Assembly: GCA_902615995.1 (NCBI GenBank)
Contig: CACMRF010000002.1
Span: 1-64,000 of the forward strand
Length of the DNA: 64,000 nucleotides
Direction of reading: 5' to 3'
Source of the DNA: an uncultured SAR116 cluster alpha proteobacterium
Lineage (GTDB): Bacteria > Pseudomonadota > Alphaproteobacteria > Puniceispirillales > Marisalimonadaceae
Under the pieces are notes generated by a model, which worked only from the letters and a program-made list of their open reading frames with translations, had not been told where the DNA came from and did no database searches. This document shows positions 54,532 to 64,000 of the stretch, in pieces (the first letter of the stretch is position 1; each line of letters begins with the position of its first letter). A program made the position numbers and the translations under genes.

Positions 54532-55239
54532 CTAAATATTTTGACTGACATCCCATCTTTTTTTAAGGTATCTACAAGTATCACAACCAAAAGATCCTTT
54601 TGGATAAATATCTTGATTCATAAGATTTTTTGCTTCACTTATTGTCTTGCTTACCCAATTGTCGTTGCAATCTAATTTGATCAAATGTAATTCAAATTTT
54701 AGAGTTTGATTGAACATAGGCTCATTTTTTAAACCATTAAAATAGACTAGGTATCCTGTGTCAGACACTTTAAACCCATTTTTACGAAACAACCACTGAT
54801 ACATTTCCAATTGTCTTCTGTAAGCTTTTGGATACTCATATTTGTTCCAAGTCTCTTCCCAATCAAAATTATTTTTTGATGTGGATTTAACGTCAGATAA
54901 AATAAGTTCACCATTAGGTTTGACCCAAACATCATCTACTGCTCCGTAAAAATGAACATCAGTTTCACTATCATAATGAGAGATACCTTGAAAATTATTT
55001 CTCCATTTATCGATATCGTCATGTTTAAATGGAACAGCATCAATATGATTTTCTAAGAAAATTGGGTGTGGTTGTTGTTTATCTCTATAGTAGTCAAATT
55101 CGTTTTTACATAAATTATCTACAGCACTATTAAGTGTAAATGGAAGTGTGTTCAGTCTTACCTTATATTTATACATTAATATAAAGCATCTTTTACAATT
55201 AAGATATTGTTCTATAGCTGATCTACTAAGTTTTATCAT
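54532..55239 (-). CDS. PD-(D/E)XK nuclease family protein with two CxxC pairs
   Basis: 235 residues. RecB/Cas4-like nuclease core: Asp102/Asp103 in YGAVDDVWV, Asp116 and Lys118 in ILSDVKSTS, and the RRQLEMYQWLF helix with the QxxxY motif. The N-terminus (LSRSAIEQYLNCKRCF) matches the PDDEXK_1 start. Cys15-x2-Cys18 and Cys219-x2-Cys222 could bind an iron-sulfur cluster or zinc, as in Cas4 and AddB. It is convergent with selO (5-bp gap). The role, repair or defence, is not settled by the sequence. Confidence 0.82.
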   Translation of the reverse strand: MIKLSRSAIEQYLNCKRCFILMYKYKVRLNTLPFTLNSAVDNLCKNEFDYYRDKQQPHPIFLENHIDAVPFKHDDIDKWRNNFQGISHYDSETDVHFYGAVDDVWVKPNGELILSDVKSTSKNNFDWEETWNKYEYPKAYRRQLEMYQWLFRKNGFKVSDTGYLVYFNGLKNEPMFNQTLKFELHLIKLDCNDNWVSKTISEAKNLMNQDIYPKGSFGCDTCRYLKKRWDVSQNI

Positions 55240-55361
55240 AAATTAATAATAAGGTATTTTAAAAAAAAATAAAAAATAATTCACTTTATTCAAGATAAAT
55301 TATTATGAATTAATAACTATTATAACATTGATTGTTATTCTAGATTTATTACATTTAAAGT

Positions 55362-57689
55362 ATGTGCTTAACAAAAAATATTTATTTTATTAAAACTTTG
55401 ATATTTTTTTCACTTTTTATTTTTCTATTAAGCTGCAGTTCAGGTAATCTGAAAACTAGCTACGGCATGAGGTTAATTTCCCATCCTAACCTTAATTTGT
55501 GTAAAGGGAAATTTCATGAAAATAGATGGACGAACTGTACAGGTTTTATAAACTATAAAAATAATGACACCTATCAGGGGGCGTTCTTAAATGGAAAAGC
55601 GCATGGTGAAGAAGGGACTTACACATGGCCTAATGGCGATACTTTTATTGGCACATTTAATAATGGTACTTATACCAGAGGAATTTACAAATGGGCAAGT
55701 GGTAATAAATATATTGGTGAATTTAAAGCTGCCGTCAAAAATTCAAGAAGGTTTTATAATAAACATGGCTTAGGCATTTATAAAAGTAGGAATGAAACAT
55801 ATATCGGAGACTTTTTGAAAAATGATTACCATGGATTTGGTCTAAAAAAACATAATTATGGAAAAAATAAAATAAGTGAGGGAGAATTTAAACGAGGTTC
55901 ATTTATAAAAAAAAGAAATGTTGATTTTAAAATTCGACAAATTAAAAATCATCTTAGATATTATATTAACCGAGACGAAGATATAAGAAAATTTGTTGAT
56001 AAAGACATTAGTGTCAAAAATAAAACACTTTACTCATACAAAGCTGAAAAAAATGTTATGCATAAGAATGTGACTCGACAGAAAGAAAATAATTATTTAA
56101 ACAGTAGAAGTCCATTGTCTTTAACAAATTCTATCGAAAAAATTAAAAATAATTTTTTTACCAAATTTAAAAAATGTTCGTCAAATATAAATAACTTTTG
56201 CGTAAAGAAAATTAAATTTTCTAATGGGTTAGGTGAGGGATTAGTTAAGAACAGAAAATTAAATGGAATAGGATATTTTAAAAATAAAAGCGGAGAAGCT
56301 TACGTTGGACAATTTAAAAATAATAGTTTTGATGGCTTGGGTATTTATTTTTATAAAGATAATTGGATATATGATGGTCAATTTAAAAATGGGAAAAAAG
56401 TTGGTTATGGAACAATGTACTTTAATAAAAAAGTTTCAAAAAGTGGGTATTGGGTTGATGGAAAATTCAAAAATAAAATCAATTTCCCAGTTTCTTTTTA
56501 TGCTTCGTCCTTATTAAACAATGCTAATTCACCTAGTAATAGCACAACTGCTCAAAATAAAACTATTAGGGAACTTAAAAAAGAACTCGACAAATTAAAA
56601 AAGGAAAATTTAAATAGATTAAAAATAATTAAACTAGATAAAGTAGAACCATCAATTAAAATATTTACAAAAATTGATGAAGAGATTGTTAGTTTAGATG
56701 GAAATATAAATGATAATGTGGGTGTTTCTGAATTAATTATCAATGATATGATAGTTGGGTTTGAAGAGAGTGGTAATTTTAAAACTAATTTGTATATCCC
56801 AAGATCTGGCCTTAATATTAAAATCACTGCTTTTGATTTGAATGGAAATAAAAGTACAAAAGAGTTTTTTGTAAATAGAAAGCCAACTCAAATTATCAAT
56901 ACTATAAAATTTTCAAAACTAGATCCTACTCAATTTAAAGTTAAAAAAAATAATAACTCATTAGCTGTTATTGTTGGTATATCAAATTATAAAGACATTC
57001 CTTCTAATGCATTGTTTGCAGATAATGATGCAAAAGTTTTTTATGATTATGCAAAGTTTAAGCTTGGGATACCAGACGAAAATATTAAAGAATTAATCAA
57101 CTCAAGAGCTGAAGAAAGTGATATTTTATTAGCTTTAAAAGAATGGCTTCGATTAAATTCATTTGATAACAAATCAAATATATATCTTTTTTTTGCGGGT
57201 CATGGTTTAGCTTCACAAGATGGAAAAGAAAAATATCTTTTACCTTATGATGGAAGACCTGAGTTACTTAATAAAACAGCAGTTTTGTTGAAAGAATTAA
57301 TTAATGATATTTCTATTCTAAAGCCAAAAAAAGTCTTTATATTTTTAGATACATGTTATTCTGGGTTATCTAGAACTGAAGAAACATTGATTTCAGCTAG
57401 ACCGGTTGTTTTAAAAGCAACAGATGAATATTTACCTAAAAATTTTACTTTATTTTCTGCTTCTAAACATGATCAGATCTCAAGACCTCTTAAAGAAACA
57501 AAACATGGAATGTTTTCTTATTTTTTAATGAAAGGAATGGAGGGTTTTGCTGATTTAAATAACGATAAAAAAATAACTACTAATGAATTGCATCAGTATG
57601 TCAAAACAAATGTTAATAAATTTTCATTAGGTAAACAGACTCCTCAGTTATTTGGAAATTCTGAAACTGTTTTGGTTAATTTGAACTAA
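55362..57689 (+). CDS. MORN-repeat lipoprotein with C-terminal caspase (peptidase C14) domain
   Basis: 775 residues. A lipoprotein signal ends in FLLSC (Cys25) followed by Ser, which favours outer-membrane sorting. MORN repeats (YxGxFxNGxxHGxG type) lie at about 71-165 and 312-370, each cluster preceded by a cysteine pair (47/59 and 272/280). A short coiled coil (about 400-420) and an Ig-like domain (about 428-505) follow. The caspase domain covers 533-775, with the dyad His613 (FFAGHG) and Cys665 (FLDTCYSG). A 12-residue EF-hand-like loop (Asp731-Glu742) may bind calcium. No ribosome binding site is evident. Confidence 0.88.
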   Translation: MCLTKNIYFIKTLIFFSLFIFLLSCSSGNLKTSYGMRLISHPNLNLCKGKFHENRWTNCTGFINYKNNDTYQGAFLNGKAHGEEGTYTWPNGDTFIGTFNNGTYTRGIYKWASGNKYIGEFKAAVKNSRRFYNKHGLGIYKSRNETYIGDFLKNDYHGFGLKKHNYGKNKISEGEFKRGSFIKKRNVDFKIRQIKNHLRYYINRDEDIRKFVDKDISVKNKTLYSYKAEKNVMHKNVTRQKENNYLNSRSPLSLTNSIEKIKNNFFTKFKKCSSNINNFCVKKIKFSNGLGEGLVKNRKLNGIGYFKNKSGEAYVGQFKNNSFDGLGIYFYKDNWIYDGQFKNGKKVGYGTMYFNKKVSKSGYWVDGKFKNKINFPVSFYASSLLNNANSPSNSTTAQNKTIRELKKELDKLKKENLNRLKIIKLDKVEPSIKIFTKIDEEIVSLDGNINDNVGVSELIINDMIVGFEESGNFKTNLYIPRSGLNIKITAFDLNGNKSTKEFFVNRKPTQIINTIKFSKLDPTQFKVKKNNNSLAVIVGISNYKDIPSNALFADNDAKVFYDYAKFKLGIPDENIKELINSRAEESDILLALKEWLRLNSFDNKSNIYLFFAGHGLASQDGKEKYLLPYDGRPELLNKTAVLLKELINDISILKPKKVFIFLDTCYSGLSRTEETLISARPVVLKATDEYLPKNFTLFSASKHDQISRPLKETKHGMFSYFLMKGMEGFADLNNDKKITTNELHQYVKTNVNKFSLGKQTPQLFGNSETVLVNLN

Positions 57690-57696
57690 AAAATAA

Positions 57697-57724
57697 TTGA
57701 ATCAATTCGTCTAACTCTTATAAT
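57697..57724 (+). promoter_or_regulatory. Promoter of the FtsK-like gene, predicted leaderless transcript
   Basis: TTGAAT (57697-57702), a 16-bp spacer and a perfect TATAAT (57719-57724) lie in the gap after the caspase gene. Transcription starting about 7 bp downstream would begin at or next to the A of the ATG at 57731. No ribosome binding site precedes this ATG. The -35 lies inside an inverted repeat, AATTGA-A-TCAATT (57695-57707), that could bind a regulator. Confidence 0.55.
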
Positions 57725-57730
57725 GTTACA

Positions 57731-60619
57731 ATGTCTAAAACTAGTACACCTTTATTATTTCCTTCTGAATATACTAATTTGGAAAATAAAGTTATTAATA
57801 AACCCCAATTTGAGGTGGGAATGATTTATGTTAAAGAAGGCGATAACATAAAAAAAGGGCAAAACCTTTTGGAATTGCATTTAATAGAGCCAAAAGAACA
57901 AGTTTTAAAACAACCATTATATTTCACAATCACTAATGAATCAGGTCAAGAAGGTTGGCTAGCTGAGTTAAGAGTTAAAAAGGGGGATATTGTGCTTCCT
58001 TCTGAGGAATTCTTAATTCTTGATAAATTAAAAGAAACGAAGAAGATCAACAATAGCAATTCACTTAGTAAAAATGAAAAGAATTATAGCTGGAGTATAA
58101 ATGAAAAATTAAAAACTATTTCAAATAGGTTTGTAGATAAGCTTAATAAAAATTTTAGTGAAATTATTGTTAATCAAGAAAATGAAATATTAAAATCTCA
58201 ATCAGAACAATTCAATAAATTGAAAGAAAGTTTAAATCCAAATTATAATTTGTTTGAAAATTTATTAATCAATCAAACTTATGAACCATCAAATTATAAC
58301 TACACACAACCTAAATTTTTGCCATTAGGATCTTTTCCAAAAGATCATTTGATTAAACAAAACCTTATTTGCCTTCAAGAATTTCCATATGGAAACATAC
58401 TTGTGGAATATAATAAAAATTCATCTCAATTTTTGCATGATTATTTAATTCAAACAATTTCTATATCATTAGAAAGTTTGGATCCAAGATTAATTCAAGT
58501 TAGAGGTATTAGTTTTGATGACTTTGGGTCATCATTAAATTTGCTTGGAAATTTTGATGAAAAGTTCCTAAAAAAAGTTTGTACTGACGATGAAGACTTA
58601 ATGAGTTTGTCAGAAGAGTTGGAACAAAGAATTATTGAAGTAAGAAAAAAATGCCTTAAATCTTACGATAATCTTTTTGATTATAATGCTTCAAATGCAA
58701 AAAACCCTTTTGCATATTATTTTGTATTTTGTACGATAAATAAATCATTTTCTGATGAATCTAAAAAAATTCTTAATAAATTTATTAGCTCAAATACGTT
58801 AAAAAATGCTGGTATTTTCTTTTATGTATTTTCAAATGACATTAAAAATATTGTTGGTGATTTTGAATTAAATATAAAGGCTCAGAATGTTAGCAAGAAA
58901 ACTGCTGATGTTTATATCATTGCAAAAGATAATAATTCAATCCTTAATAATAGATTATTAAAAACAGATCTATTATCAAAAAAAGTTTTAGCTTCAATTG
59001 TAAAGAACATTAATAGTAAGGATGTTTCTATAAACCTCGACCCTTTAATTGAAACTAAAAATCAATGGTTTAAATCAAAATCAAATGAGGGTTTAAAAGT
59101 TCCTGTAGGATATAGTTCAGATAAAAAATTAGATTTGGTCATTGGGCACGGTGCTCCTAATTATAATGTTCTTATTGGGGGAGGTGTTGGAAGTGGCAAA
59201 TCAGTATTACTGCATAATATTATTTTAGGTATTTCTACAAAATATAGTGTTGATGAATGTCAATTTTTGTTACTTGATTATAAGGAGGGTACTGAGTTTC
59301 AACCTTATGAAAATCTTCCACATGCTCATGTATTGTCTACTGAAAGTGACACTGCTTTTGGTTTGAAAACCTTAGAATTTATTAATACAGAAATCACTAA
59401 AAGAGGTGATCTATTTAAGAAACATGGAGTAAGTAATATTAAAGATCTAAAAGACAAAAAGAAAATAAAATTACCTCGTTGGTGTGTGATTATTGATGAG
59501 TTTCAAAGAATGCTTCAATATGACGCAGTAGGTGCAAAAAGTTCAGACTTGTTTGATGATCTTTTAAGACGTGGAAGAGCTTTTGGAATTCATTTCATAT
59601 TAGCAACTCAAAGTATATATGATTTAAATTTAACGCCTGCAACTTTATCCCAATTAAGTATACGTATATGCTTGAGAATTTCTGAAATGGATGCAAGTAA
59701 AATTTTACACCCTGATAATTTAGTACCCTCAACATTTGAAAAGCCTGGTATGGCAATTTATAATGATAATATTGGCCTTATTGATGCTAATGAACAAGTT
59801 CAAGTACCTTTCATTAATACTGAGAAAATTCTAAATACTATAAAATCTGTTAAATCACATAATAAAATCAAAACGGAGAATTACGTTTATAAGGGCCAAA
59901 ATTTTGAAATTTTTGACCCAAGTAAAGTTGGATCTAAAGAAAAATCAAATATTTGTTTTGGTGCACTTCAAGATATTAAAAGAAACTATCATTTTTTAAG
60001 TTTAAATCCTCAAATGTATAACCCAATTTTGATAGTCGGTAATGACAATGAAAAAAAGAAACTTATTTTGAAATCTTTTTATAGAAATTATTTTACAGAC
60101 AGCAAATCATATGAAATTGAATGTTTTGATTTTCATCCCTTAAAATCGCAATATCTTACTGATTTAATCCCAGGCAATCAAAAAAAATATGTATATATAG
60201 ATCAAAAAGAGATAATTTTAGAAAGATTAGAAATAATTAAATCAAAAAAAAGTAAATCCATACAGATATATTTGTTTATTGGACTAGACAAATTATTAGA
60301 ATTTAAAGAAAAATACACAGATGATTTAGGAAATGTAAAAAATAATAATGTAAAAGATTTAATTCTTAATATCATTAATAAAAGGCTTGCTTTAAATATC
60401 GTGCCTATTGTGTTTATTGATAAAATCAATGCTTTTACAGAGACATTCGAATCTGCAAATTTTGAAATTAACAGTGTTACACCAGATATTTATTCTAGAA
60501 AATTATATATGGAGACTCCTGGAGTAGACATAGTTGATATAGGTCGCTTAGGAAAAAATAAGATTTTATACTATGATGATGAAAATATGATAAAACAACC
60601 CCTAACTTTGTTAAAATAG
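57731..60619 (+). CDS. FtsK/SpoIIIE-type ATPase, EssC/EccC-like, with lipoyl-like N-terminal domain
   Basis: 962 residues, no transmembrane helix. Residues ~22-98 look like a barrel-sandwich (biotinyl/lipoyl-like) domain (VKEGDNIKKGQNLLEL ... GWLAELRVKKGD), without the usual modified lysine motif. A coiled region follows (~118-170), then three FtsK-like modules: ~195-375 without a P-loop; ~450-695 with Walker A GGGVGSGKS (483-491) and Walker B VIIDE (586-590) plus LLRRGRAFGIHFILATQS; and ~735-955 with a degenerate P-loop (IVGNDNEKKKL). Three modules in series match type VII secretion ATPases. Eight bp upstream of the WXG100-like gene. Confidence 0.85.
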   Translation: MSKTSTPLLFPSEYTNLENKVINKPQFEVGMIYVKEGDNIKKGQNLLELHLIEPKEQVLKQPLYFTITNESGQEGWLAELRVKKGDIVLPSEEFLILDKLKETKKINNSNSLSKNEKNYSWSINEKLKTISNRFVDKLNKNFSEIIVNQENEILKSQSEQFNKLKESLNPNYNLFENLLINQTYEPSNYNYTQPKFLPLGSFPKDHLIKQNLICLQEFPYGNILVEYNKNSSQFLHDYLIQTISISLESLDPRLIQVRGISFDDFGSSLNLLGNFDEKFLKKVCTDDEDLMSLSEELEQRIIEVRKKCLKSYDNLFDYNASNAKNPFAYYFVFCTINKSFSDESKKILNKFISSNTLKNAGIFFYVFSNDIKNIVGDFELNIKAQNVSKKTADVYIIAKDNNSILNNRLLKTDLLSKKVLASIVKNINSKDVSINLDPLIETKNQWFKSKSNEGLKVPVGYSSDKKLDLVIGHGAPNYNVLIGGGVGSGKSVLLHNIILGISTKYSVDECQFLLLDYKEGTEFQPYENLPHAHVLSTESDTAFGLKTLEFINTEITKRGDLFKKHGVSNIKDLKDKKKIKLPRWCVIIDEFQRMLQYDAVGAKSSDLFDDLLRRGRAFGIHFILATQSIYDLNLTPATLSQLSIRICLRISEMDASKILHPDNLVPSTFEKPGMAIYNDNIGLIDANEQVQVPFINTEKILNTIKSVKSHNKIKTENYVYKGQNFEIFDPSKVGSKEKSNICFGALQDIKRNYHFLSLNPQMYNPILIVGNDNEKKKLILKSFYRNYFTDSKSYEIECFDFHPLKSQYLTDLIPGNQKKYVYIDQKEIILERLEIIKSKKSKSIQIYLFIGLDKLLEFKEKYTDDLGNVKNNNVKDLILNIINKRLALNIVPIVFIDKINAFTETFESANFEINSVTPDIYSRKLYMETPGVDIVDIGRLGKNKILYYDDENMIKQPLTLLK

Positions 60620-60627
60620 GAGTATTT

Positions 60628-60915
60628 ATGGTTAAATTTAACATAAGACCTGCAGAGTTACAGACAATGATTTCAAAGTTACAACAGTACAGTAGTCAGA
60701 TGCTAAGTTTAAGTAACAATATGAAATCTACTGCTAGAAGTCTTAATGCTTCATGGAAAGATCCTCAATATCATGCGTTTATCGCTCAAATTGATGCAAT
60801 GTCTGCTTCCATGAGAGGTAATGCAGAAGCCATGGCAGCATCAAAAAAGAATCTACAAACTCTCAAACGAAACCTAGAAAGAGCCGAGCAAGAATATAGA
60901 AAATTAAATTCATGA
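60628..60915 (+). CDS. WXG100-like (ESAT-6 superfamily) small protein
   Basis: A 95-residue all-helical protein starting MVKFNIRPAELQTMI. Two long helices are joined by a turn containing Trp43-Lys-Asp45 (LNASWKDPQYHAF), the WXG/WXD hairpin of the WXG100 family, at the expected midpoint. No signal peptide. The tail EQEYRKLNS has the tyrosine but not the acidic residue of the YxxxD/E secretion signal. AGGAG precedes the ATG. It overlaps the next gene by 4 bp (ATGA) and follows an EssC-like ATPase, the classic type VII secretion pairing. It is a likely substrate or structural partner. Confidence 0.82.
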   Translation: MVKFNIRPAELQTMISKLQQYSSQMLSLSNNMKSTARSLNASWKDPQYHAFIAQIDAMSASMRGNAEAMAASKKNLQTLKRNLERAEQEYRKLNS

Positions 60916-62030
60916 TAGATAAAGCATATAAAAATTATTTTTTAGAATTAAATTCATTAGATATTCAATCAAAAAAAATTAATGAAATCTCACAAAGAAT
61001 TAATGATTTTAAAATTTATTCGAGTAATGCTTCTAAGTTAGGTAACAGCAGTTTTTTGGATGAAAAATCAAATTTTTTAAATTTGAATATTAATTATAAA
61101 AATTTCGAAAATGAATTAGATGATTTATTTAACAGAATAATTAACGATAAATATTTTGACAATGAGGAGTACGAATTAGCAACAAGAAAACTTGAGGAAT
61201 TATTTAATATAGCAGGTAACCTAAACTCAATAAGAAAAAATTTTCAAATTGTTTTAAATTCAAATTTTATAATTCATTCTTTTGACGATAAGAGTAAAAA
61301 ATATTTTCTAAAAGCCTTAAATGATGAGATAAATTATGTTTTTTCCCAAAAAAAAATGAATGTTAATGCTCAAAAAATCCCTGCTCAATTGAGACATATA
61401 AATAAAGAATTGATAGATATTAATGAATTAATCAAAGAAACTAATGAATACTCAATATGTGTTTTAGAACGAGCACTTCTTGATAAAGATATAGATTTTA
61501 AGTCTTTATTTAAAAAAGGGACTTTTATTAATTATCAAATTCAAAAAATTGTACAAGGTAAATTTGAATTTATTGAAAATGATGTTTTAAACCGTCCTTT
61601 ATATAATGTGTTTAAAATGCTAGCTGATGATGTGTGTTATTCTTTAGTAGAAGAAATTTCAAAACAATCTATGTCAAATGAATATAAAAAACATAATAAT
61701 ATAGCTCATAAATTAATTAATAACTATTTTAGGGGTTTAACTAAAGGTGATAATTTTGATATTGAGTTCATAAAAAATAAAGTTAAAGAAATTTATGAAA
61801 ATGTAAAATCTAATAATATTGCTGCTTATAACAAGTTAATGGAAAAGAAACGAAAAGCTAAATTACAAAAAAAGATATTAAAATATGTTTCATATATTGT
61901 TGGTGGTTTGCTTGGTTTATGGGCAATTATAGCTTTAATAGGTTTTCTCTGGACAAATTATCCTGGTTGGACGTTTATTGTAGGTGTTCTAATAATATAT
62001 GGCATTTACAAAGCAGGTACTAGTAAATAA
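60912..62030 (+). CDS. Unknown protein with two C-terminal transmembrane helices
   Basis: 372 residues, no family recognised. Residues 1 to about 320 are mostly helical and charged, with coiled-coil-like stretches at the start (YFLELNSLDIQSKKINEISQ) and a Lys-rich segment (KKRKAKLQKK) just before two membrane helices at about 325-347 and 352-367, leaving a short C-terminal tail. The large domain is probably cytoplasmic. It is translationally coupled to the WXG100-like gene by a 4-bp overlap. Since the ATPase lacks membrane helices, this protein may anchor it. Confidence 0.8.
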   Translation: MIDKAYKNYFLELNSLDIQSKKINEISQRINDFKIYSSNASKLGNSSFLDEKSNFLNLNINYKNFENELDDLFNRIINDKYFDNEEYELATRKLEELFNIAGNLNSIRKNFQIVLNSNFIIHSFDDKSKKYFLKALNDEINYVFSQKKMNVNAQKIPAQLRHINKELIDINELIKETNEYSICVLERALLDKDIDFKSLFKKGTFINYQIQKIVQGKFEFIENDVLNRPLYNVFKMLADDVCYSLVEEISKQSMSNEYKKHNNIAHKLINNYFRGLTKGDNFDIEFIKNKVKEIYENVKSNNIAAYNKLMEKKRKAKLQKKILKYVSYIVGGLLGLWAIIALIGFLWTNYPGWTFIVGVLIIYGIYKAGTSK

Positions 62031-62089
62031 ATATTACATAATTTTATTAGATTAAATTCTATTTTTTAACCTTAACTTCTGGATGAAAT

Positions 62090-63490
62090 ATGTATGATTA
62101 TGTAAATAAATGGATTAAAAATAACAAAGATAAAATCTATAATTTTTCTGAGTTCTCAATTATTTGTCCTTTAGAAATTCAAATGCGTATAACCAATCTA
62201 GATTTGCCAGATAGCGATCTTGATTTTATAGATAAAAGATTTAATGATTTAAATGATTATCTATCGTTTAATGTATCTGGAGAAGTTGAAACAATTAGTT
62301 TAACTTTATGGACAGAAGAGGGTAGTGGTAACATTATCTTTGAATGTGATTTTAAAAATAAAAAAATTATTTACCCAACTAAATTAAATTATTCAAAGAT
62401 AGATGAAACAAAGCTATCAAGTATTCTTGATAAACAATTTAATAAGTGTTTTGAAAAAAATAATTGGGAAGATTCTTTTGGAAACAGATTTGTTACATTT
62501 TTGTCTAGAGAAAAGTATGATTTGATTAATGAACAAGATAAAAAACCTTGGGAAAATGCTAAAAATAAAAATTTAAAGATTTATTATGAAAACTTTAAAA
62601 AACAACCTAGTTATTGGAATGAAATTATTGCTCCATATTTAAATTATATTTTAGACCAAGAATTTATAAAAAATAAAGGTCCTGAAAATATCAAAAAAAT
62701 AACTTATGATAGATTTGATTATATTAAATTTAAGTCATTTATTTGTGAGGCTACAGATAATGAATCAAGGATAGATCCAAAAAGAAAAATTCAAGGAATG
62801 CCTGATATATGTGTCTATGTTTACTATTTAGTTAGTGTTCCAGATAATGATTCCCTAGATACTTTTGCTGGAGCGAGTGTTAATCAATGGCTTACTGAAA
62901 ATATCAAATATTTAAATATTAATAATATGATGGATGTTATAAGAGGTATTTCATTTAATCATATATATTTTAATTTTTGTTTGTTAACTACAGATACTCT
63001 TGGGTATGACTATTTTCTTTTAGATACACAAGAAGCTATCAATGAAACTAAAAAAAGTGATTTGATTAAATCTATAACAATAAAAGGTCAAAGTTCTTAC
63101 ATTGAAAGCAAATTAGACAAGGAAACTTTTGTAAAAGAATTTAAAGAGAATTTACCACCATCAATTGAAGATCCTTTAGCTACTGAAAAATCTACAAAAA
63201 TAGATCTTCCTTTTGATTTCACTCAGAAATGTAATTTGTTAGTGTCAGTTTTATTAAATAAGATTTCGAAGAATAAGATTAATCTTGATGTTAAGTTAAT
63301 GAAGCCAGATTTGATTTTATTTAAACTTTGTGAGGACAGAACCACCTTTGTTTCATTGATACAATCAATTAAATTAAATTTTGATGTTTTAACAGAGGTG
63401 CCTGAAAAACATTTAATAACTATGGCAGATGTATACGCATTTATACATGATTATATCATTAATTCATTCTCTTTAGATGATGTTGAATAA
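62090..63490 (+). CDS. Unknown protein with C-terminal acyl-carrier-protein-like domain
   Basis: 466 residues, no signal peptide or membrane helix. Residues 1 to ~375 match nothing I recognise; there are several Trp/Tyr-rich stretches (FKKQPSYWNEIIAPYLNYIL). Residues ~380-458 look like an acyl carrier protein: helix I (NLLVSVLLNKI), a helix II with VSLIQSIKLNFDV, and the terminal VPEKHLITMADVYAFIHDYI. The Asp-Ser-Leu attachment site is replaced by Asp416-Arg-Thr, so it cannot carry phosphopantetheine there. 59 bp after the membrane-protein gene, same strand. Confidence 0.72.
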   Translation: MYDYVNKWIKNNKDKIYNFSEFSIICPLEIQMRITNLDLPDSDLDFIDKRFNDLNDYLSFNVSGEVETISLTLWTEEGSGNIIFECDFKNKKIIYPTKLNYSKIDETKLSSILDKQFNKCFEKNNWEDSFGNRFVTFLSREKYDLINEQDKKPWENAKNKNLKIYYENFKKQPSYWNEIIAPYLNYILDQEFIKNKGPENIKKITYDRFDYIKFKSFICEATDNESRIDPKRKIQGMPDICVYVYYLVSVPDNDSLDTFAGASVNQWLTENIKYLNINNMMDVIRGISFNHIYFNFCLLTTDTLGYDYFLLDTQEAINETKKSDLIKSITIKGQSSYIESKLDKETFVKEFKENLPPSIEDPLATEKSTKIDLPFDFTQKCNLLVSVLLNKISKNKINLDVKLMKPDLILFKLCEDRTTFVSLIQSIKLNFDVLTEVPEKHLITMADVYAFIHDYIINSFSLDDVE

Positions 63491-63500
63491 TTTTTTTAAG

Positions 63501-63896
63501 TTATAACCTAATAGAAAATCTATTTCTCATTTGTTCTATCGATGATTTTGGTACGTCATGTATTGATTGACCTTTATGCCTGTTTTCTAGAATAAGACTT
63601 ACAAAGTGTGCATTATATTTAATAGCTAAATCTTGATACTCTTTTACCTCATGTTCAGTCGTCATTGTATTGCTAACTACAACAGAATTACCAAGTTTTA
63701 ACTCTTTTTCTACATTTTTATAACAAAATTCATGTGCTTTTTTAATTAATTTAAAATCAAATATCCCGTCATTAAAATTGTCAAAATATTGATCGGCTTC
63801 AAAAAAATTTAAACCTAAATACTTAGCAAATTCTGATTTTCCTGAGCCAGGTAACCCTCTAACAGCAATTAATTTTAAATCATTTTTTTCATTCAT
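63501..63896 (-). CDS. P-loop kinase-like protein (AAA_33, N4BP2/polynucleotide-kinase-like)
   Basis: 131 residues from the ATG at 63896. Walker A RGLPGSGKSEFA near residue 13, EADQYF, the KKAHEFCYKNVEKELKLG helix, VVVSNTMTTEHEVKEYQDLA and VPKSSIEQMRNRF together match small ATP-binding proteins related to the kinase domain of N4BP2 and phage polynucleotide kinases. The frame is open to 63965, but that would add residues before the conserved start and run into the divergent gene. Convergent with the 466-residue gene (10-bp gap). Confidence 0.82.
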   Translation of the reverse strand: MNEKNDLKLIAVRGLPGSGKSEFAKYLGLNFFEADQYFDNFNDGIFDFKLIKKAHEFCYKNVEKELKLGNSVVVSNTMTTEHEVKEYQDLAIKYNAHFVSLILENRHKGQSIHDVPKSSIEQMRNRFSIRL

Positions 63897-63929
63897 AACT
63901 TTGTTTAATGATATATAATAATTTACAAT

Positions 63930-64000
63930 ATGATAGATAAAAAAATCATTAAAAATATTCATCAAAACATAGCAGTTACCGTTGAAAATTTACTTTTAGA
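63930..64000 (+). CDS. Start of an unidentified gene (cut by window end)
   Basis: An ATG at 63930 opens a frame running to the window edge, reading MIDKKIIKNIHQNIAVTVEN at the start. Too short to identify. It would be divergent from the kinase gene with a 33-bp gap, which fits the compact layout elsewhere. It could be chance. Confidence 0.4.
   Translation, partial: MIDKKIIKNIHQNIAVTVENLLL

What the first reader, a model, noticed from the sequence alone, without database searches (positions are those of the whole stretch)
57731..63490. Type VII secretion-like operon in a probable diderm alphaproteobacterium
Four genes run in one direction: a three-module FtsK/EssC-like ATPase (8-bp gap), a 95-residue WXG100-like protein with a mid-chain WKD turn (4-bp overlap), a protein with two membrane helices, and a large unknown protein. 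An EssC-type ATPase directly followed by a WXG100 protein is the minimal core of type VII secretion, characterised in Actinobacteria and Firmicutes. The surrounding genes (mla, lptFG, surA, EipB) imply an outer membrane. The accompanying genes do not resemble EccB/D/E, EsaA, EssA or EssB. This may be a distinct lineage or a non-secretory use of the same parts.
Basis: partly seen in the sequence, partly recalled or inferred. Interest (0 to 1): 0.88.

Follow-up and report, generated by a model that had tools for sequence, protein, structure and literature searches.

The report
Mobile type VII-like cassette in Gram-negative
A Gram-negative bacterium carries, on a strain-specific DNA island, a pumping motor and a small partner protein that are distant cousins of the type VII secretion machinery of Gram-positive bacteria; such cassettes had been noticed in other Gram-negatives, but nobody has yet shown what they do.

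Summary
57731-60619 encodes an FtsK/EssC-family ATPase with three modules, only the middle one with Walker A and B; 60628-60915 is a true WXG100-type protein (PF06013 above cut-off). The 372- and 466-aa partners have no detectable relatives. It is not a classical type VII system: the ATPase has no predicted membrane helix and no D3 module, and there is no EccB/D/E, EsaA, EssA/B or EsaB. [quoted passage not shown] PMC11090510) and unconfirmed as secretion systems (PMC10765036). New here: a member in this alphaproteobacterial-type lineage on a ~27-kb island absent from same-genus relatives; a family-wide WxD turn instead of WxG; co-linearity with D1-D2 of EccC; colicin-DNase plus SUKH immunity genes in the cargo slot of Helicobacter/Campylobacter relatives; membrane hairpins fused to the ATPase in planctomycete relatives. 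Best mechanism: a WxD-guided protein-export motor docked to the inner membrane by the 372-aa protein. Function is inferred, not shown.

The parts
57731..60619 (+). Three-module FtsK/EssC-like ATPase, 962 aa, no predicted transmembrane helix
   Evidence: FtsK_SpoIIIE 1.3e-21; EssC TIGR03928 7.4e-37; AF2 model mean pLDDT 72, modules 2 and 3 mostly 70-95; EccC 4nh0 Z 31.3 over 486 residues, 4.2 A; highest hydropathy 1.63
57803..58030 (+). Residues 25-100: biotin/lipoyl-like (barrel-sandwich) sequence without the modifiable lysine motif; not seen in any of the 86 related loci
   Evidence: Biotin_lipoyl_2 5.9e-5 and Biotin_lipoyl 8.6e-4 on the 120-aa fragment, both under Pfam cut-off; BCCP chains best but weak, E 0.02; no relative; pLDDT under 50 there: tentative
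58070..58225 (+). Residues 114-165: one long predicted helix (coiled-coil-like) ahead of module 1
   Evidence: secondary structure of the model at low confidence
58307..59026 (+). Module 1 (residues 193-432), FtsK-like, degenerate (no GKS/GKT)
   Evidence: hhalign to EccC/EssC D2 96.4%, D1 94.4%; no match to the slice taken as D0; sequence
59027..59830 (+). Module 2 (residues 433-700), intact: Walker A GGGVGSGKS at 483-491, Walker B WCVIIDEF at 584-591, invariant R616, Q627, R645
   Evidence: best match is D1 of EccC/EssC: 3e-38 against 2e-31 (D2) and 8e-14 (D3),
59873..60616 (+). Module 3 (residues 715-962), degenerate; corresponds to D2 of EccC/EssC; the protein ends where D3 would start
   Evidence: hhalign D2 95.7% against D3 64.1% and D1 60.3%; one collinear alignment of 443-962 to EccC 413-1067, E 4e-42
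60628..60915 (+). WXG100-family protein, 95 aa, turn motif WKD at residues 43-45 (60754-60762)
   Evidence: PF06013 1.9e-8 over cut-off; relatives' WxD profile 2.5e-18
60912..62030 (+). 372-aa protein: mostly helical, C-terminal membrane helices (322-347 clear, about 352-367 weaker) behind a lysine-rich stretch; proposed membrane anchor of the ATPase, or alternatively an effector
   Evidence: hydropathy; no relatives; fused counterpart in planctomycete-type ATPases
62090..63490 (+). 466-aa protein of unknown fold, no membrane helix; cargo, immunity or regulator unresolved
   Evidence: no family, structure or sequence match; single-sequence model unusable, pLDDT 37
55250..64000 (.). Part inside the window of an accessory island that runs on to about contig position 82,480
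   Evidence: blastn homology to same-genus genomes stops at 55,247-55,275 and resumes at 82,476-82,489; GC 22-26% in most 4-kb bins from 56 to 80 kb

Best explanation
A member of the diderm 'solo WXG plus middle-active three-module EssC-like ATPase' cassettes, carried on an accessory island. Most likely mechanism: the ATPase forms a ring through module 2, the only module that can hydrolyse ATP, with modules 1 and 3 as degenerate docking and regulatory modules. It is held at the inner membrane not by its own helices, as in EssC/EccC, but by the neighbouring 372-aa protein with C-terminal membrane helices. The WxD hairpin protein, probably a dimer, binds the motor and serves as activator or targeting partner for a helical-leader cargo, which is pushed across the inner membrane; in relatives the cargo is an antibacterial-type nuclease with its immunity gene. 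Shown: sequence family, module activity pattern, co-linearity with D1-D2 of EccC, conserved ATPase-WXG neighbourhood, island setting, toxin/immunity cargo in the epsilon branch. Inferred: ring, membrane docking by the 372-aa protein, direction of transport, cargo identity here (possibly the 466-aa protein or a gene elsewhere). No outer-membrane component was found.
For: EssC/EccC best by sequence and fold; intact Walker motifs only in module 2; collinear with D1-D2 of EccC; true WXG100 with the family-wide WxD turn, 67 of 79 WXG-like genes found, as in HP0062 (WRD, PMC3397514); WXG near the ATPase in 47 of 86 loci; the gene between WXG and ATPase in Helicobacter and Campylobacter is a helical leader plus Colicin-DNase/WHH nuclease followed by SUKH (SMI1/KNR4), two nuclease copies in H. 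labacensis; planctomycete/verrucomicrobial/lentisphaeral ATPases carry coiled coils and a membrane hairpin fused ahead of module 1; Pararhodobacter and Deinococcus have separate coiled-coil plus membrane-helix proteins next to a soluble ATPase.
Against: Secretion has not been shown for any member of this kind (PMC10765036). The 372-aa protein has no detectable homology to the fused hairpins, so the anchor role rests on architecture alone. The beta/gammaproteobacterial TerY-P branch has no membrane part at all, so an intracellular job is possible for the family. No cargo or immunity gene is recognisable in this operon. No outer-membrane exit is encoded.
Confidence: 0.5

Rival explanations
1. 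Non-secretory use: an intracellular conflict or defence module in which the WxD protein and the EssC-like motor act on proteins or nucleic acid inside the cell, as suspected for the TerY-P/CoCoNuT-linked versions.
For: The ATPase has no membrane helix. In the beta/gammaproteobacterial branch the same pair is embedded with VWA, PP2C phosphatase, Ser/Thr kinase, a CARF-annotated protein and an AAA protein and has no membrane partner. The CoCoNuT authors note that the lack of transmembrane domains makes a different mechanism likely (PMC11090510). Here the island also holds NACHT-like NTPase and TPR genes, and a caspase gene lies upstream.
Against: None of the TerY-P partners is present here, and PADLOC finds only the caspase and weak generic ATPase matches. 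The window groups with Akkermansia/Bacteroidales members, not with the TerY-P branch. The 372-aa neighbour is a membrane protein. The epsilon branch carries toxin plus immunity pairs.
Confidence: 0.27
2. The 372-aa protein is the effector, not the anchor: a helical leader with a C-terminal membrane-active tail, comparable in lay-out to LXG toxins that insert into membranes, with the 466-aa protein as its immunity or accessory protein.
For: It occupies, directly after the WXG gene, the place of the helical-leader proteins of Pararhodobacter (312 aa, ParB-like tail by eye) and, relative to the WXG gene, of the WHH nucleases of Helicobacter/Campylobacter. Cargo in these operons is the least conserved part, which fits its lack of homologues. 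TspA shows that membrane-depolarising T7SSb substrates exist (PMC7456083).
Against: No WXG/LXG similarity in its leader. The lysine-rich stretch before the helix favours a resident protein with its large domain in the cytoplasm (positive-inside rule, general knowledge). The soluble ATPase would then have no anchor.
Confidence: 0.25
3. A DNA translocase or conjugation-type motor (FtsK/TcpA-like) with a WXG100 neighbour by chance.
For: FtsK and TcpA motor domains superpose on module 2 as closely as EccC does (Z 28-31).
Against: Sequence and tandem arrangement favour EccC/EssC; FtsK model 34.6 bits against a cut-off of 1566; no FtsK gamma domain or relaxase nearby; the WXG linkage recurs across phyla; this family is distinct from the chromosomal FtsK found in the relatives at about 28% identity.
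Confidence: 0.04
4. Assembly or binning artefact: foreign DNA joined to this genome.
For: No relative of the cassette in 136 genomes of the order; the genome is an incomplete assembly of 47 contigs; composition shifts at the edges.
Against: Both flanks on the same contig are same-genus DNA: left flank 78-94% and right flank 91-94% DNA identity to relatives, and the same point is a breakpoint in several relatives. The order also carries relatives of the caspase gene next to it.
Confidence: 0.04

Closest known systems
Mobile T7SS with solo WXG and middle-active three-domain YueA-like ATPase (Zhang et al. 2012, PMC3482391, footnote to the secretion table)
   Same: Three FtsK/HerA modules with only the middle one active; WXG gene in the operon; mobile setting; diderm hosts
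   Different: The 2012 list names beta-, gamma- and epsilonproteobacteria, planctomycetes, verrucomicrobia, cyanobacteria and bacteroidetes, not this lineage; here with a lipoyl-like N-terminus and two orphan partners
EssC-like ATPase plus two WXG100 extension of Type III-A CoCoNuTs (PMC11090510) and the TerY-P clusters
   Same: ATPase with only the central module active, no membrane helices, helical stretch ahead of module 1, WXG100 partner
   Different: No VWA/kinase/phosphatase/helicase/nuclease partners here; one WXG instead of two; a membrane protein in the operon
Helicobacter HP0062/HP0066 and the Helicobacter/Campylobacter cassettes (PMC4978471, PMC3397514; loci L023, L099, L107)
   Same: WxD hairpin protein and three-module ATPase
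   Different: Epsilon cassettes carry Colicin-DNase/WHH nuclease and SUKH immunity genes between WXG and ATPase; none recognisable here
Akkermansia and Bacteroidales cassettes (loci L070, L077, L076)
   Same: Nearest ATPases in the tree (support 0.994) and, for Akkermansia, nearest WXG genes
   Different: ATPase only 23-24% identical overall; two WXG genes in Akkermansia and none recognised in L076; other partners (Sel1/ankyrin proteins in Akkermansia, a kinase-like protein in L076)
Classical T7SSa (ESX) and T7SSb (Ess/Yuk)
   Same: EccC/EssC D1-D2 homology; WXG100 protein
   Different: No membrane helices in the ATPase, no D3, no EccB/D/E, EsaA, EssA, EssB or EsaB, WxD instead of WxG

Membership tests
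[quoted passage not shown]
Diderm solo-WXG / middle-active three-module ATPase cassette (PMC3482391, PMC11090510) | WXG100-type gene in the same operon | tested here: met
Diderm solo-WXG / middle-active three-module ATPase cassette (PMC3482391, PMC11090510) | Mobile or accessory location | tested here: met
   Absent from 136 genomes of the order by PF06013; island edges at 55,247 and about 82,480. No integrase was identified.
Diderm solo-WXG / middle-active three-module ATPase cassette (PMC3482391, PMC11090510) | Common descent of the ATPase with these cassettes rather than with EssC/EccC | tested here: met
   Tree of module 2: window with L070/L077/L076 at 0.994; annotated EssC form their own clade at 0.997. 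Rooting on EccC is arbitrary.
CoCoNuT / TerY-P linked version | VWA, PP2C phosphatase and Ser/Thr kinase genes alongside | tested here: not met
   none in 55-79 kb of the contig by Pfam/PADLOC of the main ORFs
Classical T7SSa/T7SSb | WXG100 protein | tested here: met
   PF06013 over cut-off; NCBIfam WXG100_ESAT6 under cut-off
Classical T7SSa/T7SSb | EccC/EssC equivalog ATPase with D1-D3 | tested here: not met
   126.5 bits against a cut-off of 778; collinear with D1-D2 only, ends before D3
Classical T7SSa/T7SSb | Membrane-anchored ATPase | tested here: not met
   maximum 19-residue hydropathy 1.63, inside module 3
Classical T7SSa/T7SSb | EccB/EccD/EccE or EsaA/EssA/EssB/EsaB partners | tested here: not met
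   no Pfam or NCBIfam match of the partners at E up to 1 to any such family
Classical T7SSa/T7SSb | Secretion of the WXG protein | not testable with these tools
   needs experiment
FtsK DNA translocase | FtsK equivalog score and C-terminal gamma domain | tested here: not met
   34.6 bits against a cut-off of 1566; no gamma-domain match in Pfam at E up to 1

The most novel reading that the evidence does not exclude
A type VII-related export system of diderm bacteria built from separate parts: a soluble motor equivalent to D1-D2 of EccC with a lipoyl-like adaptor domain in front, docked to the inner membrane by a separate hairpin protein, guided by a WxD protein and lacking the D3 module. It would be a distinct class of T7SS present in alphaproteobacteria.
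Probability: 0.25. Interest if true: 0.75.

Novelty: new member of a known kind. Interest (0 to 1): 0.5.

Why it matters
Textbook type VII secretion belongs to Actinomycetota and Bacillota. WXG plus FtsK pairs in Gram-negatives have been reported since about 2011 but, according to a 2023 review, never confirmed as secretion systems (PMC10765036). This case adds a lineage and, with its relatives, gives features that make the question testable: a diagnostic WxD turn, an ATPase that stops before D3 (the module that, from general knowledge of the EccC structure work, binds the export signal of EsxB), toxin-immunity cargo in one branch, and membrane hairpins fused to the motor in another.

Tried and rejected
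Close relatives of the ATPase in genomes and viral contigs by single-protein search: none. Relatives of the 372- and 466-aa proteins: none in viral contigs, plasmids, the neighbourhoods of related cassettes by phmmer (45) or hhalign, 18 whole genomes that carry related cassettes (372-aa only, 110), PHROGs or PDB. A PADLOC LeoBC match of the 372-aa protein (1.9e-6) was not accepted: no GTPase domain, and the protein is helical and K/N/E-rich; it was not tested further. An acyl-carrier-like look of the 466-aa C-terminus was by eye only and found no support. Structure of the 466-aa protein from its sequence alone: pLDDT 37, not usable, so no fold search was run. The upstream caspase-MORN lipoprotein (55362-57689) was left out of the system: its relatives occur in many copies in the order without the cassette, and none occurs near related ATPases. 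Module 1 as D0 of EccC: no support by hhalign on the slice I took as D0. Absence of a C-terminal YxxxD/E signal (1 of 79) is not diagnostic, since a Bacillota WXG100 control lacks it too. Promoter and terminator scan: promoters no more than shuffles; the one + strand terminator-like site lies inside the ATPase gene.
Full report
What is there. The 962-aa protein matches FtsK_SpoIIIE and, far better than FtsK, the T7SS ATPase models EssC and EccC, though well below their equivalog cut-offs. The 95-aa protein passes the Pfam WXG100 cut-off. In the 136 genomes of the same order no other gene does, and in 61 relatives the ATPase finds only partial matches at about 28% identity in ORFs of mostly 770-860 aa, consistent with housekeeping FtsK. 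The host is diderm: two LptF/LptG genes and EipB are in the window.

Anatomy of the motor. Only residues 433-700 carry Walker A (GGGVGSGKS, 483-491) and Walker B (WCVIIDEF, 584-591). Modules 1 and 3 are FtsK-like but degenerate. The AlphaFold model (38 sequences, mean pLDDT 72) superposes residues 432-962 on EccC 415-1033 (Z 31.3, 486 residues, 4.2 A); module 2 alone superposes on FtsK as well as on EccC, so fold alone does not decide between them. A profile-profile alignment runs collinearly from residue 443 to 962 against EccC 413-1067 (E 4e-42). Module by module, module 2 is closest to D1 and module 3 to D2. The protein therefore stops where D3 begins. No segment is hydrophobic enough for a membrane helix. 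The N-terminus (residues 25-100) resembles biotin/lipoyl domains weakly, is modelled with low confidence, and is not found in the other loci.

Relatives. An alignment-based scan of one genome per species returned many related loci (446 confirmed, best 80 kept): Planctomycetes, Verrucomicrobia, Lentisphaerae, Cyanobacteria, Chloroflexota, Proteobacteria (including Pararhodobacter, another Rhodobacteraceae and Acetobacter), Campylobacterota, Bacteroidota, and also Actinobacteria and Firmicutes. In 47 of 86 loci examined a WXG-like gene lies near the ATPase. Of 79 WXG-like genes found, 67 have W-x-D rather than W-x-G at the turn; the Helicobacter pylori protein HP0062 is reported to have WRD there and an FtsK-domain gene in its cluster (PMC3397514). 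On a tree of module 2 the window sits with Akkermansia and a Bacteroidales genome (support 0.994), apart from annotated EssC and EccC; the window branch is long and the rooting is arbitrary.

What sits around the pair elsewhere. In Helicobacter and Campylobacter the slot between WXG and ATPase holds a helical leader fused to a Colicin-DNase/WHH nuclease followed by a SUKH (SMI1/KNR4) gene, the usual look of a toxin with its immunity protein. In beta/gammaproteobacteria and Acetobacter the pair is embedded with VWA, PP2C, kinase, CARF-annotated and AAA proteins and has no membrane component. In Planctomycetes, Verrucomicrobia and Lentisphaerae the ATPase itself has coiled coils and one or two membrane helices before module 1. 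In Pararhodobacter, Deinococcus and others a separate coiled-coil plus membrane-helix protein lies next to a soluble ATPase. The window's 372-aa protein, helical with C-terminal membrane helices, looks like such a split anchor. This is an argument from architecture, not homology, and the same protein could instead be an effector.

Setting. Homology to same-genus genomes stops at 55,247-55,275 and resumes at 82,476-82,489 on the same contig, with lower GC in most of the stretch between. In two relatives different genes follow the left edge, and in several others the contig ends there. The cassette is therefore on an accessory island of about 27 kb whose two flanks belong to this genus, which argues against a binning artefact. 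No relative was seen with both flanks joined, so an empty site is not shown. The island also carries a NACHT/NPHP3-like NTPase and several TPR proteins.

Mechanism. Best supported: an EssC-type motor with one working ATPase module, brought to the inner membrane by the 372-aa protein and guided or activated by the WxD protein, exporting or delivering a cargo. Shown: family, module pattern, D1-D2 co-linearity, conserved neighbourhood, island. Inferred: hexamer, docking, direction of transport, cargo. Confidence about 0.5, with intracellular defence use the main rival (0.27). Whether the 372-aa protein is anchor or effector is a separate open point. Nothing found here would take a substrate across the outer membrane.

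Known or new. Zhang et al. [quoted passage not shown] The CoCoNuT paper (PMC11090510) describes the same ATPase pattern with WXG100 partners and no membrane helices. A 2023 review (PMC10765036) notes that such Gram-negative pairs have not been confirmed functionally. The window is a new member of that kind, in a lineage not on the 2012 list, with an unusual N-terminus and two orphan partners. It fails the tests for a classical T7SS on membrane anchoring, D3 and partner genes; that lowers 'it is a T7SS', not 'it works like one'.

Noticed in passing
window 55362-57689 (+): Caspase-like (Peptidase_C14) protein with MORN repeats and a lipoprotein-like N-terminus, 41 bp upstream of the ATPase; related caspase/MORN proteins occur in multiple copies in several genomes of the family and order.
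   Followed up: partly
contig C2 63930-69116 (L064 3930-9116), beyond the window's end: Two NTPase-like proteins (542 and 732 aa, the second NPHP3_N/NACHT) each with an R-x4-H motif that looks HEPN-like by eye, followed by a TPR protein (448 aa): a possible separate conflict system on the same island.
   Followed up: partly
contig C2 69108-75317 (L064): A 1261-aa membrane protein with no Pfam match and an 806-aa TPR protein, both in the low-GC part of the island.
   Followed up: no
contig C2 76903-78331 (L064): LPP20-like lipoprotein next to a 273-aa exported protein, a pair that by recollection resembles DUF4384/LPP20 genes near caspases.
   Followed up: no
window 54532-55239 (-) and contig C2 80464-81981: Cas4-like PD-(D/E)XK proteins near both ends of the island; the left one is core in the genus.
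   Followed up: partly
L107 6340-9035 (Helicobacter labacensis): Two near-equal Colicin-DNase/WHH toxin-like genes flank a 140-aa gene of the SUKH-like cluster (SMI1/KNR4 in its Helicobacter/Campylobacter relatives) and a small gene within one cassette, which suggests cargo duplication.
   Followed up: partly
L082 5265-6203 and L090 2359-3297 (Rhodobacteraceae): 312-aa helical-leader protein after two WXG genes; in L082 its C-terminus reads by eye like a ParB/Srx nuclease-type domain; no Pfam match.
   Followed up: partly
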